A DNA stretch of 64,000 bases from contig MARA01000008.1 in assembly GCA_001792895.1 (NCBI GenBank), positions 186,001 through 250,000 on the forward strand, read 5' to 3'. Shown here piece by piece: positions 235 through 7,500 of the stretch. This stretch comes from Lentinus brumalis (taxonomy: Eukaryota; Basidiomycota; Agaricomycetes; Polyporales; Polyporaceae). The notes beneath the pieces were generated by a model, which saw nothing but the letters and a program-made list of their open reading frames with translations, was not told the origin of the DNA and did no database searches. The translations under genes were made by a program, and so were the position numbers. The first letter of the stretch is position 1; the number at the start of each line of letters is the position of its first letter.

Positions 235-242
235 GTTACGGT
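235..242. repeat. 8-bp target site duplication, left copy
   Basis: GTTACGGT directly abuts the left terminal repeat and is repeated exactly at 7065-7072 after the right terminal repeat. Confidence 0.92.
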
Positions 243-277
243 AGGACCCCTGCATAAGCGCTAATAACTTACACCCC
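243..277 (+). repeat. left terminal inverted repeat, 35 bp
   Basis: It begins AGGACCCCTGCATAAGCG and ends in AACTTACACCCC. It matches the reverse complement of 7030-7064 at all 35 positions and diverges immediately after. Confidence 0.95.
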
Positions 278-413
278 GGAACCTCCAAAAATGGGCCCGG
301 AGGGCCCGAAAACTTACATGCCAAACTCCAAAAAGTTGGGTCTGGGAGGCGCAACTTACACCCCCAAAAAGCACCCTCGAGAGACCAACTTACAGGCATC
401 GGACCTCCAAAAA
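266..413 (+). repeat. left subterminal repeat array of the transposon
   Basis: Two short motifs alternate about every 35-45 bp. AACTTACA lies at 266, 311, 353 and 387. A C-rich/A-tract motif (CCTCCAAAAA or a one-base variant) lies at 282, 326, 361 and 404. Such subterminal arrays are commonly transposase binding sites in class II elements; that role is inferred here. Confidence 0.8.
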
Positions 414-572
414 GTGTCCCATGAGCACGCACATGGAGCAACGTCCGATCAGCTTCGGGCGTTCCCACGTGGTACATACCTGATCCGTCTGCGCATACCG
501 AACACCTTGGGAAGTCATCTTCCTTCGATATGCAAGGCTCGGCGCCGACCTTATGTTGGCCCCGAAAAGGCC

Positions 573-579
573 ATATATA
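573..579 (+). promoter_or_regulatory. probable TATA box of the transposon gene
   Basis: A TATATAC-type element lies about 155 bp upstream of the start codon at 733, between the subterminal array and the gene. This would place initiation near 605. It is a sequence match only. Confidence 0.45.
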
Positions 580-732
580 CCCAGCCGCCCACATAACACG
601 CTGCGTCGTGCCTGTAATGTACCATAGAGCTTGCAGTAATAATTACATGTAAATCATCTCGACCAGCGAGGATGTCAGACGGCCACTGAAGGCTCCCCAA
701 CACCCACTGTCCACAATCGCAACCACGATCCC

Positions 733-3700
733 ATGGACCCCGACTCTATTGTCGCCCCACCCAACCTACTCTCTGCATTCCAAGTCCCTGGTGATCGTTC
801 TGTTGCCCAACTTCTCGCTTGGCCGAACACTCCTCCTCGCCCACGAAGTCACAAGTATGATATCCCGGCACTACATTGGTTCTCGGACAAGGAACCGACA
901 CTCCACATCCTTGATTCTTCTGAGATACTGCTCCCTTCGTCGCAGAACTGCGTTGCGTTGGACTCAAGACTTCGGGAGGCATGTACCAACGGAGCCCGCT
1001 CGGTACAGCATCCAGTCAAGAACGACGTCTATCTGCCGTTGTGGATCGTCCGTGTTTGGAAGTGGGGAGATGGTCTGCTTCGCGCACAGGAGGTGTGGAG
1101 GGATTGCTTAGGTTGGGTTGAGAAGGCCGGAAAGCGGGAGAAGTGGGGAGAAGAGATGGCGGCAAGGATTCGCGACACTGTGTTGAGTTGCCCACAGATG
1201 ACCGGTTTCGCAATCCTGCAGAACGGAGGGGTCAGCTCGTCAACCTTGGCGAAGAATCTCTTGTCAAATGCATGGTTGAATGACGAGAGCATGAACTGTC
1301 TCCTAGATGTCTTCACACACAACATGCGGTCGTCGAACACGAGTCCCGCGACGTCCACAGCCTCTATCTACCTCCGTACCTCGCTGAAGAATCCAAATTC
1401 AACGACTCACCAACATTACGCCAACAAGCTCGCATCAGGTGCTGTCCACAAACTTTTGATGCCGTGCAATATCCGGAACGTCCACTGGATTGCTGTCGAG
1501 GTTGACGTGACTGCGAAGATCATCAGTATCGGTGACTCAAGCCCCAAGTTCTCCCGGGGCGACCTACCTGGTTTGCTTGCCGAGATTCGGGGATTCCTGG
1601 CTCCTGTCTACCCGAATGCGTCTTGGAGAGTCAATCAGTCGGCTCTTGAGACCGGACTCCAGGTTGACGGCACATCGTGCGGGATCGCAAGTTTGAACGC
1701 GATCGAGCGGCGTATCTTCCCCGACGCTCCGGCATGGTCACCATCTGCACCGGGCTTCATGCGTGCAGCCTACTTCGAGCGCTGCGTGACGTTAGGGTCT
1801 CAGGTGAGTCTGATTATACTGAAATGGCTGCACTGACCGTGATACTCATGCGTGTTGTCAAACCAGCATCAGCACGACTCTCTTCACAATGATCGACCAC
1901 CTGTCCCAGACGTGGAGGATCAGCAACTGACTGTCGAGGCCAACGGTACGTACCAACAGCGCTGATGCTGAATCATCGGCTGTGTATCAAGCTGACATGA
2001 CGAAACATACTTAGGCACCTGTTCCACAACCGACATACTCCCAAGCAGTTCGGACTCAGGGAGCTCCGCCGGGCGTTCGGAGGCTGCATCGGCCTCTGAC
2101 CCTGAATCCGGAGACGACTCTGACAGTACAGGCCAGCCCGAATCCCCAAAGCCCCAGCGTTGCAACACGAATACGTCAAAGAAGTCGGTCCCGTCCGTGC
2201 ACCGTAAGCCGCATGCCCAGCCTCCGACAAACAAGATGAGCGCATCTGCAGAGACCAAGCCCAAGGGAGGTTTGAGGAGGGACGCAGTCGTGAGTATATA
2301 ATGGATCTCATGGGTTCAGAATGCTGACGACGAACCTATACCCTTGCAGCCCACATGGTGGTCAGATACTGGGTTCAAGAGCTTCAGGAAGAAGATCCTC
2401 CGCATGGATCCGAAGGCCGACTTCAGCTTGCATGACAGGAAGGTTGTCGTCTGCTCGCGGTGCTACAAGCCGGTGCCGATGCGCGTAGCAAATCAAGTCG
2501 ACCGGTTCGAGAGCCACCGCGACGGGAAGAAGTGCCTTGATGGCGATGAAGTACCGATCAACCCGGGGCAGACATTCCTGTCGGGGTGGCTGAGCAAAAC
2601 ACCTCAGGGGATCAGCGTCTCGACCAGCAGGACAGAAGTGCGCACCCTCGCGGACGAAGTAGCCTGCCCGGGCATAGGCTTCGACAACAACCCACGCATC
2701 CCACCGTATCTCAGACGGACTGTCGTACCCTCGGGCGGGGCACCCCGGCGAGAGGTGCTCACGCTGGAGGTTCTCCGCCAGCACAAAAAGACGTCGGGTG
2801 AGGGGGACGTACATGCGCTCACGGCCAAGGAGGTCAAGGATCGTGTGCTTGCTGCAGAGCGGACACAAGCACGATGGCTCAACCATCACACCACCGGCAC
2901 GGTCACCTCGCCATTCTGCCTCCGGCGTGCTCAGATCTCACGCACAGGAGATATCTGCCCTTGCGCCAAATGCCTAGGTGTCTTGCGGCTCAAGGTCTTC
3001 CGTACTGCGATCAAGAAACGCCCGCCGAAGCCCGGACGTTCAATACATACGCCAAAGGGGTACCGTAACGAGGTTGTCGGAGCATCCTTCTTCCGATTCC
3101 TTGACGTCGAAGAGCTATTGACAATGGTAAGTACGCACTAAGTCGCTGCCAATACACATTGAAACTGAAACCTTTGGTCTTTAGCCAGCGGATCAGTTTC
3201 CGTGGCTTGAGTTTGCCCAACGGGGTGTGGCTGGTCGCTACAAGGATCGCGGAACATTTATTGGGATGATGAAGACAATCATGAGGGTGGAAGAGCGCTT
3301 GCATCAGGGGAAGGAGCTGAAGAACATACGCTATGACGCATCATACGACGACTTTTGCACGCAGATGGCGCTTCTATCGCCGCGATGCTACTCACTTCTT
3401 CAAGCAGAGTGCGGAGGACGCACTCTGCGGAGCATGCAGTGAGCTGATTCACATTGCGTCTAACGGTGAACATCAGCTGATGGGAGCGTCAGACAACATC
3501 GTGCAAAAGCAGGGAAATTCCAACCAGGAATCGTCGATGCGAACTTCGACGCAGCTGTAAGGTGGGCGGAAAGCCTAGGCTGGAATGGTCCGTTCATCTT
3601 GGCCGTCGATGATACGAAGGTCACTGCGGCGCTGCGCTCCTACCAAGACGGAGGTCAGTGGTGCCTGGGAGGCCTTCATGGGGTGGTGCACACATTCACG

Positions 3701-6700
3701 ACCTATGAAGAATTGCTGGAGCTCTCACGCATTGATAAGGGGGAGATAGCAGAGAAGGTATTGCTCACCTGCTGAGTACAAAAACTCGTCACTCACCCCA
3801 TGTCATAGGTACGCGCGTGGCTCTTGATCATCCCTGTGATCGGCGTGCCTCCCCGGCTTGTCGCGACCATGGCACTTCGGAGCAAGGTTGGCCGGCCGCA
3901 GCTGCGTTCGTGGCACGAGGAGGTCTCTGCCAAGCTGTCTTCCCGGAACTTGCACATTGTGTCGTACAATGTTGATGGCGTCGAGACCGAGCGGGGTCTT
4001 ACCCATGACATCCAGAGAGACGCGTTTGCGGAGGGCATGTCCCACGCGTGGACGTTCCGGCACCCATGCGACAATCAGCCACCCCTCATACTCAAAGTCC
4101 CGCTACTTGCGAACCGCAAGCCATGCATCATGTCATCAGATGGGAAGCACGCCAAGAAGAACTCGCGCGGAAGCGCTATCTCTGGCGCACGGGTACTGGC
4201 CATGGGTCGCTACCTCATCCACTACGGGCAACTTGCCACTCTGGCACAGGGCGAGGACTCACCGCTGATGAAGTCGGACATTATCGGGGTTGACAAACAA
4301 GATGATCGGGCAGCGGCTCGTCTCTTCTCCTCCGCAACCGTCGACTATGCCCGGGTTGTGATGCCCGACGAACTTGGGCTGGCGAGTTACTTGTTCATTG
4401 TCGGCGAGGTCTTGGACGCCCAGCAGAATCGGCACCTCGGCCATTGCGAACGAGTCAAGATGCTGTGGCGGGCGCGGTTCTTTCTGGATGGATGGCGTCA
4501 GCACATTCTGGACCACCCTCACTACGCAGCACCTACCCACTTCATCACCCGCGAGCTCTACGATATCCTCTCGATCTTCATCAACGCGATGTTGTGCCTC
4601 ATCCTCACACATCGCGACTTCTTCCCCGACGTCCCTCTATTCCACTGGCTGAACTCGACAGAGCCCTGTGAGCACTTCTTTGGGTGTGCGCGCAAGATAC
4701 AGAAGGACTTCACCTTTGTCGAGTGGCTCATCATGCTTCCGAAGATCGCCATCCTCATGGCGGGAGAGTTGCGCAACAAGATGAAGGGTGCTCAGGAGAA
4801 GGCATCTGCAAGCCGCTACGGCTATCATCATTCCTACTTCCACTCGCGCGGGGTGAACCTCTCGAACCTCGCCTCATTCCCATCCGATGACGAGTTCCAA
4901 TTGATGATTGACGTCGCACACGAGGAGGCGCAGAACCTCCTAACGCTGCTTGGAATCGAGGTGGCTGCGTCGGCAGTGGTGGATGAGGAAGCTTTGACGG
5001 CCGCTCTAGAGTTTCTGTCGAACGATCCACCGTCCGAGCCCGCAGCTGGCGAAGGGGACCAGTCTGTTGCTGACATGTTGGAGCAACTTCTCCGCGAGGA
5101 CGGCGGCCAGTACAGGCGTCACGAGGACCCTGTTGGAACGGACGAGCCACTGACGGATCTTGGCATACAGAGCATCGCCACGATCATACACGATCACCTG
5201 AGACTGTAAGTCGTCGTGCATGTACGTCAACGGGATGGCACTCACAAATATGTTACGCAGTCAGAGCATCGTGGATGATATACCGGACCCCGGTGAAGAC
5301 GAAAGTGCGGCGGTATATCGCGCTCATATTGCAGAGGTGCTCCAGACCATCAACAACGAGCTGGAGCTGAGAGCAGATGCAGAGAGCCACACGAGTCAGC
5401 ATGTAACCGGTGCGGTCAACCCCGGCGGGGCCGAGAACCTTCGACACACTCACCATGCAGACACGCCTCCAAGTCACGCAGCGAAAACCACCTCGATGGA
5501 GCGCGATGCAACCGAGCCTGCCATGGTTTGTGACCTTCTTTGCTCTCCACCTCGGTACATACGCTGATGCCCAAAACGAACACGTCAGGTTACGCAAGAC
5601 CAGGGAACTGATAGGCCGCGGAAGACTTACTCGGAAACCATTGAACGCCTGCGAAAACCGCTGGATTTCGGAACGGCGCGAGCTTTCAACTTCACTGCGC
5701 TCGTCGATGAGCGCAAGCGACACGAGACTGATGAAGCACGCAGCGCCATTGCTTACCGCTTCAAACACGCAGTTGCTAGCGGCGCGCTTGAGTCTTTGGA
5801 CCGCGCCGGAAGTCAGAGCGACTCCAACCCCGCTCTCGCGGGTGATAGCTCGGAGCTGAAAGCGTCGCTTGTGTCTGAGATTACGCGCGTGATGTCGTCC
5901 TCGTTCAGCGGGAAGGGCGATGGCCGTGGGACAGCGTCCGGCGTCGAACGAAAGGAGCGGTGGGAGGGAGGTGGACAGCCCGCAAGCGCAGACGGCGAGC
6001 CTGAGAATGCGCCAACGACAGGTGAGAGCTCCTGCCTGCGGCTGACCACATCATGAGGACTGACCATGTCCCGATGTTAGCGGACAGGGGGATGGCCCCG
6101 AGAATCCGAGTCTACAGAGACATCGATGCTCGATCGGCATTCACGCTCAAATTGGGAGGGATCTCCCACTTCCGGCCCCTCAAGCACGGATCCTGGGTTG
6201 TTGTCTGTAGAATGGGGAAGCTCTATATCGGGCAGGGTGAGTTCATAGTCAGCATGTCGACACAGAGAGACAGGAAAGCTGAAAATCGACTTTAGTCAAG
6301 GTGATTTACGTCAAGGGCGGGGGACAACGGCCTACGCACAATTACTCGCCTGAGTGCGCGGACGTGAGCAAGCTATCGCGCCTCGTCGTCCTCATGTACA
6401 CGGACATGGGCATGGGGGATATGTCCATCCTGACGCCTCTCACTGTATCGCTTGGCAACGGCGATATGGCTGACTCCCCGACCTATCTTTTCCTTCGACA
6501 GGAGGAGCTCGTCACGTCTCTGGACGCGCTATGCCCAAACCCCATTGAAAACACAATGCCTATTCGACCGGGCTTATCGATGCTCACAGTCAGCTCCAAG
6601 CTCACAGATCCATTTTTCAACTTACAGGGAAATGCAGCGGCGATCGCGAAGGCTGTGGAGACCTTGATCAAGGACTCGAGGAAACGGCGTAAGCCTGGTG

Positions 6701-6774
6701 AGGACCCAGATGTCGAGGGAGAGCTGGATGTCGAGGAAGAAGAGACGGTCGCACACAAGAGGAGGAAGCTTTGA
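733..6774 (+). CDS. Ulp1 protease-zinc finger-P-element-like transposase fusion (1,816 aa, 11 exons)
   Basis: Exons: 733-1803, 1867-1945, 2015-2289, 2350-3126, 3185-3438, 3493-3757, 3809-5205, 5261-5525, 5589-6021, 6081-6236, 6296-6774. All introns are GT-AG (51-69 bp) and the exon sum is 1,817 codons with no internal stop. Residues about 180-320 form a Ulp1/C48 SUMO-protease-like domain: WLND at 181, H251, D268, Q310 and C316 in a TSCGIAS box. A BED-like finger follows (C510-x2-C513-x17-H531-x5-C537), then a CPCAKC cluster at 678-683. The RNase H-fold transposase has LAVDDTKV (D858/D859), SYNVDGVETER (D963), DGKHAKKN (D1018) and CEHFFGCAR (E1195). The tail (about 1,600-1,816) is novel to me and ends in basic, NLS-like KRRKL. 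The protease may process the polyprotein or act on SUMO-like targets; this is inference. The exon 5/6 junction is the least certain splice. Confidence 0.85.
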
Positions 6775-6915
6775 GCTGTACTAGTGGTAGCAATGTGCAT
6801 GTGAGCGAGCGGCGGTCGTGCACTGAGTCGATAGCGAAGACGAAGTGAGGGTTACTACTATGACCGTATCAGGGAGGCCTACAGCTATTTCGGGGAGCGC
6901 CCGGCGGGCGCTTGG

Positions 6916-7008
6916 AACTTACATCCCGGGAACCTCCAAAAATGGCGGCCTCGGAGCCAACTTACACGCCGACCTCCGAAAAGTAGCCCTCCGGGGGACC
7001 TCCAAAAA
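6916..7008 (+). repeat. right subterminal repeat array of the transposon
   Basis: AACTTACA lies at 6916 and 6959. CCTCCAAAAA-type motifs lie at 6933, 6973 (one mismatch) and 6999. They point in the same direction as the left array rather than inverted. The terminal repeat itself supplies one inverted copy (TGTAAGTT at 7034). Confidence 0.75.
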
Positions 7009-7029
7009 GGGGCAAAATGAGGCCGGCCG

Positions 7030-7064
7030 GGGGTGTAAGTTATTAGCGCTTATGCAGGGGTCCT
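7030..7064 (-). repeat. right terminal inverted repeat, 35 bp
   Basis: It is the exact reverse complement of 243-277 and is followed at once by the second copy of GTTACGGT. Confidence 0.95.
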
Positions 7065-7072
7065 GTTACGGT
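7065..7072. repeat. 8-bp target site duplication, right copy
   Basis: GTTACGGT is identical to 235-242. Confidence 0.92.
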
Positions 7073-7099: not shown

Positions 7100-7500
7100 G
7101 ACGAGCGGGCTTTAGCCCCGAGTTGAGCTCCACTCATGAAGTATAGTCTAGTTGTATGCTGATATGATTTGGTTGGACCACTGGAGGGTGTCCAGTTCGA
7201 CTGGCTGGTGTCAGTCACAGTCGCTCGTGGTGGCCAGCGAGCGCGGACGAGCCGGCTTGTTGGTGACCGGCCATGCTTAGCTGGATCAGTCCCGGACCAC
7301 CCGGGATCGCTCTGCGGCCAGAGCTCAGACGAGCGGGCTTTAGCCCCGAGTCGAGCTCCACTGTAGGATGGTATAGTTGTATTGCTGATTTGGTTGGACC
7401 ACTGGGTTCGACTGGCTGGATGTCAGTCCCGATCGCTTGCGGTGGCGAGCGAGCTCAGCCGGCGAGCGGGCTTTAGCCCCGAGCGAGCGAGCGAGCTCCG
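7100..7500. repeat. diverged tandem repeat right of the transposon
   Basis: The 19-bp core AGCGGGCTTTAGCCCCGAG recurs at 7104, 7332 and 7465. GATTTGGTTGGACCACTGG recurs near 7165 and 7386. Each core contains a small CGGGCT-TT-AGCCCG hairpin. The unit is irregular (228 and 133 bp between cores). No coding potential is evident. The repeat lies outside the transposon's duplication, so it is host DNA or an older element. Confidence 0.6.

What the first reader, a model, noticed from the sequence alone, without database searches (positions are those of the whole stretch)
243..7064. Intact Ulp1 protease-transposase fusion transposon with P-element hallmarks in a fungus
Directly seen: 35-bp perfect terminal repeats, exact 8-bp target duplication, and one gene whose 11 exons sum to 1,817 codons without a stop. 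From family knowledge: H251/D268/Q310/C316 is a complete Ulp1/C48 site, and LAVDDTKV, SYNVDGVE, DGKHAKKN and CEHFFG resemble the DD(D)E and D..H..KN blocks of P/THAP9 transposases. Joining a SUMO-protease domain to a P-like transposase in one polypeptide is unusual, and the C-terminal 200 residues match nothing I know. Inference: the protease may cut the polyprotein or strip SUMO to escape host control. Completeness suggests recent activity.
Basis: partly seen in the sequence, partly recalled or inferred. Interest (0 to 1): 0.88.

Follow-up and report, generated by a model that had tools for sequence, protein, structure and literature searches.

The report
Fungal P-type transposon with SUMO protease
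A complete-looking jumping gene in a mushroom-forming fungus appears to make one large protein that joins a cutting enzyme of the fruit-fly P-element type to a SUMO-removing type of protease, and a related protease unit also rides on an unrelated kind of jumping gene in that genome.

The parts
235..242 (.). left target-site duplication GTTACGGT
243..277 (+). left terminal inverted repeat, 35 bp, begins AGGACCCC
   Evidence: the AGGACCCC end recurs in the other family members examined
266..413 (+). left repeats (AACTTACA at 266, 311, 353, 387; ACCTCCAAAAA at 281, 403), candidate transposase-binding sites
   Evidence: the binding role is inference
733..1803 (+). exon 1: N-terminal extension (residues 1 to about 135-175) and Ulp1/C48 protease (to 357; H251, D268, Q310, C316)
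1873..1945 (+). exon 2 (acceptor at 1866 also possible)
2015..2289 (+). exon 3: Ser/Asp-rich linker
2350..3126 (+). exon 4: start of the transposase part, conserved Cys positions
2452..2535 (+). C2HC (BED-like, name recalled) finger motif, residues 508-535
   Evidence: pattern scan; fold and DNA binding not tested
3185..3438 (+). exon 5
3493..3757 (+). exon 6: first catalytic Asp in LAVDDTK (D856 or D857, codons 3608-3613)
3809..5205 (+). exon 7: RNase H fold with D961 (3974-3976), DGKH motif D1016-H1019 (4139-4150), mainly helical insertion domain, E1193 (4670-4672)
5261..5525 (+). exon 8
5589..6021 (+). exon 9
6081..6236 (+). exon 10: start of the conserved C-terminal region
6296..6774 (+). 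exon 11: C-terminal region, basic tail KRRKL, stop at 6772-6774
6916..7008 (+). right repeats (AACTTACA at 6916, 6959; ACCTCCRAAAA at 6932, 6972, 6998)
7030..7064 (-). right terminal inverted repeat, 35 bp
7065..7072 (.). right target-site duplication GTTACGGT

Best explanation
This is an autonomous-looking cut-and-paste DNA transposon of the P superfamily from a mushroom-forming fungus. Its single predicted gene encodes a roughly 1,815-residue transposase with an N-terminal extension plus Ulp1-type protease, a Ser/Asp-rich linker, a C2HC finger motif, an RNase H catalytic core interrupted by an insertion domain, and a conserved C-terminal region. Shown here by sequence and structure comparison: the ends, the 8-bp duplications, the P-type fold (on a relative), the signature residues, the Ulp1 fold with its catalytic residues, and the age of the fusion. 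Inferred: the transposase binds the subterminal repeats, excises the element and inserts it with an 8-bp stagger. Also inferred, and less certain: the protease removes SUMO from the transposase itself or from host repair or silencing proteins at the transposition site, keeping the complex active or stable.
For: TIR and TSD. 7 of 7 two-ended elements carry perfect 8-bp TSDs. P fold. Signature: D367 in 39 of 39 rows with a residue there, D422 and H425 in 40 of 40, E599 in 50 of 50 (P0007 numbering), after strand 361-366, after strand 418-421 and in helix 596-608, compared with the description in PMC8230255. Ulp1 fold. H251, Q310 and C316 invariant in 6 of 6, D268 in 5 of 6 (the sixth lacks that stretch). 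The fusion is found in Ganoderma adspersum and Trametes pubescens proteins and in elements A/B and C58. Constraint on Ulp1 between the window and copy A: codon-position divergence 0.36/0.30/0.62, dN 0.42, dS not computable.
Confidence: 0.75

Rival explanations
1. The transposase belongs to another superfamily with 8-bp duplications (KDZ/Zisupton or hAT) and only resembles P.
For: Zisupton and usual hAT elements also make 8-bp duplications (PMC12730594 passages); a KDZ transposase occurs in this genome.
Confidence: 0.05
2. Ulp1 and transposase are two neighbouring genes (or are split after translation), not one functional polypeptide.
For: P0069 begins after the Ulp1 part. The DDE_1-type elements have Ulp1 and DDE_1 in separate open frames.
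Against: An open spliced frame with good splice signals. Independent annotations fuse them in Ganoderma and Trametes. Element B is collinear over residues 8-1812.
Confidence: 0.13
3. The protease acts on ubiquitin or NEDD8 or on the element's own polyprotein rather than on SUMO, or is a passenger with no role in transposition.
Confidence: 0.25

Closest known systems
Drosophila P element transposase (PDB 6P5A/6PE2) and THAP9
   Same: RNase H core with the D/D/E and [C/D](2)H signature, a domain inserted before the catalytic Glu helix, 8-bp duplications, short perfect terminal repeats (31 bp in P; 35 bp here).
   Different: No THAP domain pattern; an N-terminal Ulp1 module of about 355 residues; a C2HC finger motif; a conserved C-terminal region of about 200 residues; 12-14% identity in the structural alignments.
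P-1_MLP, P-2_MLP, P-1_PSt (P superfamily in rust fungi)
   Same: P superfamily in Basidiomycota; the Melampsora copies have 8-bp duplications (PMC3164196 passage).
   Different: Rusts, not Agaricomycetes. Sequences not held here, so relatedness was not tested; the passage seen mentions no protease.
Ulp1-bearing transposons: Ginger1, Mutator-like elements of plants and animals, CryptonF/CryptonS of oomycetes
   Same: A C48 protease is carried by a DNA transposon, in Ginger1 as part of the transposase (PMC2836005 and PMC3212892 passages).
   Different: Other transposase or recombinase types; in Ginger1 the protease is C-terminal, here N-terminal.
Ulp1 + DDE_1-type elements in the same genome (L037, L039 and others; the label pogo-like is recalled)
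   Same: Homologous N-terminal extension plus Ulp1 module upstream of the transposase.
   Different: DDE_1 transposase; 26-nt ends beginning CTGTACC flanked by 2-bp repeats TA or GA.
TET/JBP-carrying fungal transposons
   Same: An accessory enzyme shared among unrelated transposon superfamilies in fungi (PMC12730594 abstract and passages).
   Different: A dioxygenase acting on methylcytosine, not a protease.

Membership tests
P superfamily of DNA transposons | DDE triad on b1, b4 and a4 of an RNase H fold | tested here: met
   VDDTK in strand 257-265, D367 after strand 361-366, E599 in helix 596-608 of the P0007 model; E599 conserved 50 of 50; VDDTK or ADDTK in 7 of 7 rows covering it in A1. 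Naming the strands b1 and b4 is my assignment by order; no residue-level structural alignment was available
P superfamily of DNA transposons | [C/D](2)H motif right after b5 (as described in PMC8230255) | tested here: met
   DGKH, D422-H425 directly after strand 418-421, the last clear strand before the helical insertion; D and H in 40 of 40 rows covering them. That 418-421 is b5 is my assignment
P superfamily of DNA transposons | overall fold including an insertion domain before the catalytic Glu helix | tested here: met
P superfamily of DNA transposons | 8-bp target-site duplication | tested here: met
   window copy and 7 of 7 elements with both ends, window included
P superfamily of DNA transposons | sequence homology to known P transposases | tested here: inconclusive
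   No P-type transposase family for the window protein; one of 50 members matches Tnp_P_element at E 0.056; profile A2 finds no P chain; Repbase not available
P superfamily of DNA transposons | N-terminal THAP domain (present in Drosophila P and THAP9; not part of the signature string) | tested here: not met
   C2CH pattern absent from the window protein and from 5 relatives scanned, 3 of which are partial; no THAP Pfam match
P superfamily of DNA transposons | GTP-dependent strand transfer | not testable with these tools
   needs protein
Ulp1/SENP (C48) proteases | His-Asp-Cys triad and oxyanion Gln | tested here: met
   H251, D268, Q310, C316
Ulp1/SENP (C48) proteases | Ulp1 fold | tested here: met
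Ulp1/SENP (C48) proteases | Pfam PF02902 above gathering score | tested here: not met
   17 bits against 20.7 for the window exon; relatives P0062 and P0064 carry PF02902, L038's module scores 20.9
Ulp1/SENP (C48) proteases | cleavage of SUMO precursors or conjugates | not testable with these tools
   needs an enzyme assay
KDZ (Kyakuja-Dileera-Zisupton) | PF18758 transposase domain | tested here: not met
   no match for the window protein nor among the 14 families listed for 50 family members
hAT | hAT-type fold or family match | tested here: inconclusive

The most novel reading that the evidence does not exclude
Mushroom DNA transposons share a dedicated cassette, an N-terminal extension plus Ulp1-type protease, that has moved between unrelated transposase superfamilies (P-type and DDE_1-type), much as TET/JBP genes have. 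It would be a transferable tool against SUMO-dependent control of transposons.
Probability: 0.45. Interest if true: 0.75.

Novelty: new variant of a known kind. Interest (0 to 1): 0.62.

Why it matters
It ties a set of unannotated mushroom-fungus proteins to the P superfamily, which I found described in Basidiomycota only from rusts. It also shows a Ulp1-type protease fused to a P-type transposase and conserved over long divergence. A related Ulp1 module on two unrelated transposase types in one genome makes the suspected role of SUMO or ubiquitin removal in transposition (raised for Ginger1) directly testable, with ends, autonomous copies and short non-autonomous substrates at hand.

Tried and rejected
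KDZ/Zisupton was my first expectation from the 8-bp duplication and the fungal host; it was dropped because no KDZ match appeared while KDZ is easily detected elsewhere in the genome. A sequence-profile link to P transposase in the PDB failed. Folding the left end as single-stranded DNA gave nothing unusual (z -1.1). A dN/dS value for Ulp1 could not be computed (NG86 returned no dS, YN00 failed). In the search with the C45 short element, 8 matches covering only about query bases 26-94 (C60, C44, C102, C80, C48, C78, C56:263828, C13:1344456) were not followed. Three left-end places without a right end (C51, C82:1765392, C65) are outside the 7-of-7 duplication count; C65 also has a second bare AGGACCCC. 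The VIA list does not exclude folds it does not show (note). Literature: the ten searches (seen as listings with starts of abstracts) in the held open-access library showed no paper on a P-type transposase joined to Ulp1; papers not held and Repbase were not seen.

Full report
What is there. The element runs from 243 to 7064. Its 35-bp ends are perfect inverted copies and it is flanked by GTTACGGT on both sides. Near the ends lie repeats: AACTTACA occurs 8 times in the 64-kb window against 0.62 expected, all inside the element, 7 in its outer parts (2 of them within the terminal repeats) and 1 in exon 11. ACCTCCRAAAA occurs 5 times, all in the outer parts. One gene on the + strand can be spliced from 11 exons with GT..AG introns of 51-69 bp into an open frame of 1,814-1,818 codons.

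Is it one gene? The whole-length search returned three long proteins. Ganoderma adspersum (1,566 aa) and Trametes pubescens (1,529 aa) begin with the Ulp1 part and run through the transposase; Phanerochaete sordida (1,123 aa) begins after it. Element B of the same genome aligns collinearly from residue 8 to 1812. Alignment breaks fall at or near 7 of the 10 predicted intron positions (473, 732, 817, 1371, 1459, 1603, 1655); the intron at 905 is missing there, those at 357 and 381 lie within one alignment, and a further break at 112 is the frame break named below. Splicing itself is not observed.

Family in this genome. At the ends of contigs C56 and C126, which overlap by about 10.5 kb at 99.4%, two copies lie head to head. 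Copy A is flanked by GCAGAGGC (left on C56, right on C126). Copy B sits inside A's terminal region, about 150 bp from A's end, and is flanked by CCTATTAC. A and B are 99.9% identical. This nested insertion is the best sign of recent movement; it assumes that the two contigs belong together. One of the two copies has a frame break in the Ulp1 exon, and the two contig ends disagree on which. A third lineage at C58, 36% identical in the transposase, has Ulp1-like sequence in the same order inside AGGACCCC ends with duplication ATCATAAC. Its Ulp1 region contains stops when read straight through, which may be introns or decay, and shows the Asp and Gln..Cys motifs but not the His motif in that frame. 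Short non-autonomous copies with the same ends lie at C82, C45 and C13. Of 10 left-end places examined (9, C65), 7 have both ends, and 7 of those 7 have perfect 8-bp duplications.

A shared module. The window's Ulp1 exon also finds modules at C126:1254264, C13 and C35 (27%, 28% and 25% identity), with His, Asp, Gln and Cys all in place in the three. Downstream of the C126 and C35 modules is a DDE_1 transposase (PF03184, E 2.8e-6 and 1.5e-5); at C13 only a piece matching the first part of that protein follows. Searching with the C35 proteins places such a transposase sequence and a Ulp1 module side by side on one strand at 7 loci: C35, C126, C13, C57, C60, C108 and C78. The Pfam domain itself was scored only at C126 and C35, and the transposase match holds stops at 5 of the 7 (C126, C13, C57, C60, C78). 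Of 10 Ulp1 places, one (C51) has no listed partner and two are the P-type elements at C58 and the window. Of 11 transposase matches, C66 and two small C13 fragments have no module. L037 and L039 have perfect 26-nt inverted ends around both frames, flanked by TA and GA. Profile comparison (8 P-type against 3 DDE_1-type sequences, a single pairwise comparison) links the two groups both in the catalytic part (E 2.9e-15, probability 98.5) and in the N-terminal extension (E 5.2e-6, probability 85.9); reversed controls gave 0.23 and 0.32. Sharing the extension argues for one module passed between transposon types rather than two separate captures of a plain Ulp1, though capture of one host gene by both cannot be excluded.

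How it probably works. By analogy with P, the transposase recognises the terminal region, cuts, and inserts with an 8-bp stagger. Each of these steps is inference from fold and footprint. The protease most likely removes SUMO near the transpososome, from the transposase or from host repair or silencing proteins. The Ginger1 paper raised a related role for Ulp1 and OTU domains (PMC2836005, passages). Self-cleavage of the polyprotein is possible but has no support here.

What is known. P elements in Basidiomycota are known from rusts (PMC3164196, passage). Ulp1 in DNA transposons is known from Ginger1, Mutator-like elements and Cryptons (PMC2836005, PMC3212892, passages). Accessory enzymes shared by unrelated fungal transposons are known for TET/JBP (PMC12730594, abstract and passages). 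I rate it a new variant of a known kind.

Noticed in passing
L037:2095-6599 (C126:1251095-1255599), L039:2584-7167 (C35): DDE_1-type transposons with a homologous Ulp1 module upstream, perfect 26-nt ends beginning CTGTACC and 2-bp flanking repeats TA and GA.
   Followed up: partly
L037:53-1426 (-), C126: KDZ transposase ORF (PF18758, E 2.6e-41) beside the Ulp1/DDE_1 element.
   Followed up: no
L034:4638-5056 (C82), L036:4826-5328 (C45), L038:7218-7560 (C13): Short non-autonomous elements with AGGACCCC/GGGGTCCT ends and perfect 8-bp duplications.
   Followed up: partly
C56 end / C126 start: The two contig ends overlap in a palindromic arrangement caused by the head-to-head nested pair; probably one locus split by the assembler.
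   Followed up: partly
window 7102-7483: A 21-nt unit CGAGCGGGCTTTAGCCCCGAG three times in the right flank of the element.
   Followed up: no
P0017, P0018, P0020-P0023, P0026: Short (313-325 aa) annotated pieces of this transposase in seven Trametes, Cubamyces and Lenzites records; gene-model fragments or possibly retained genes.
   Followed up: no
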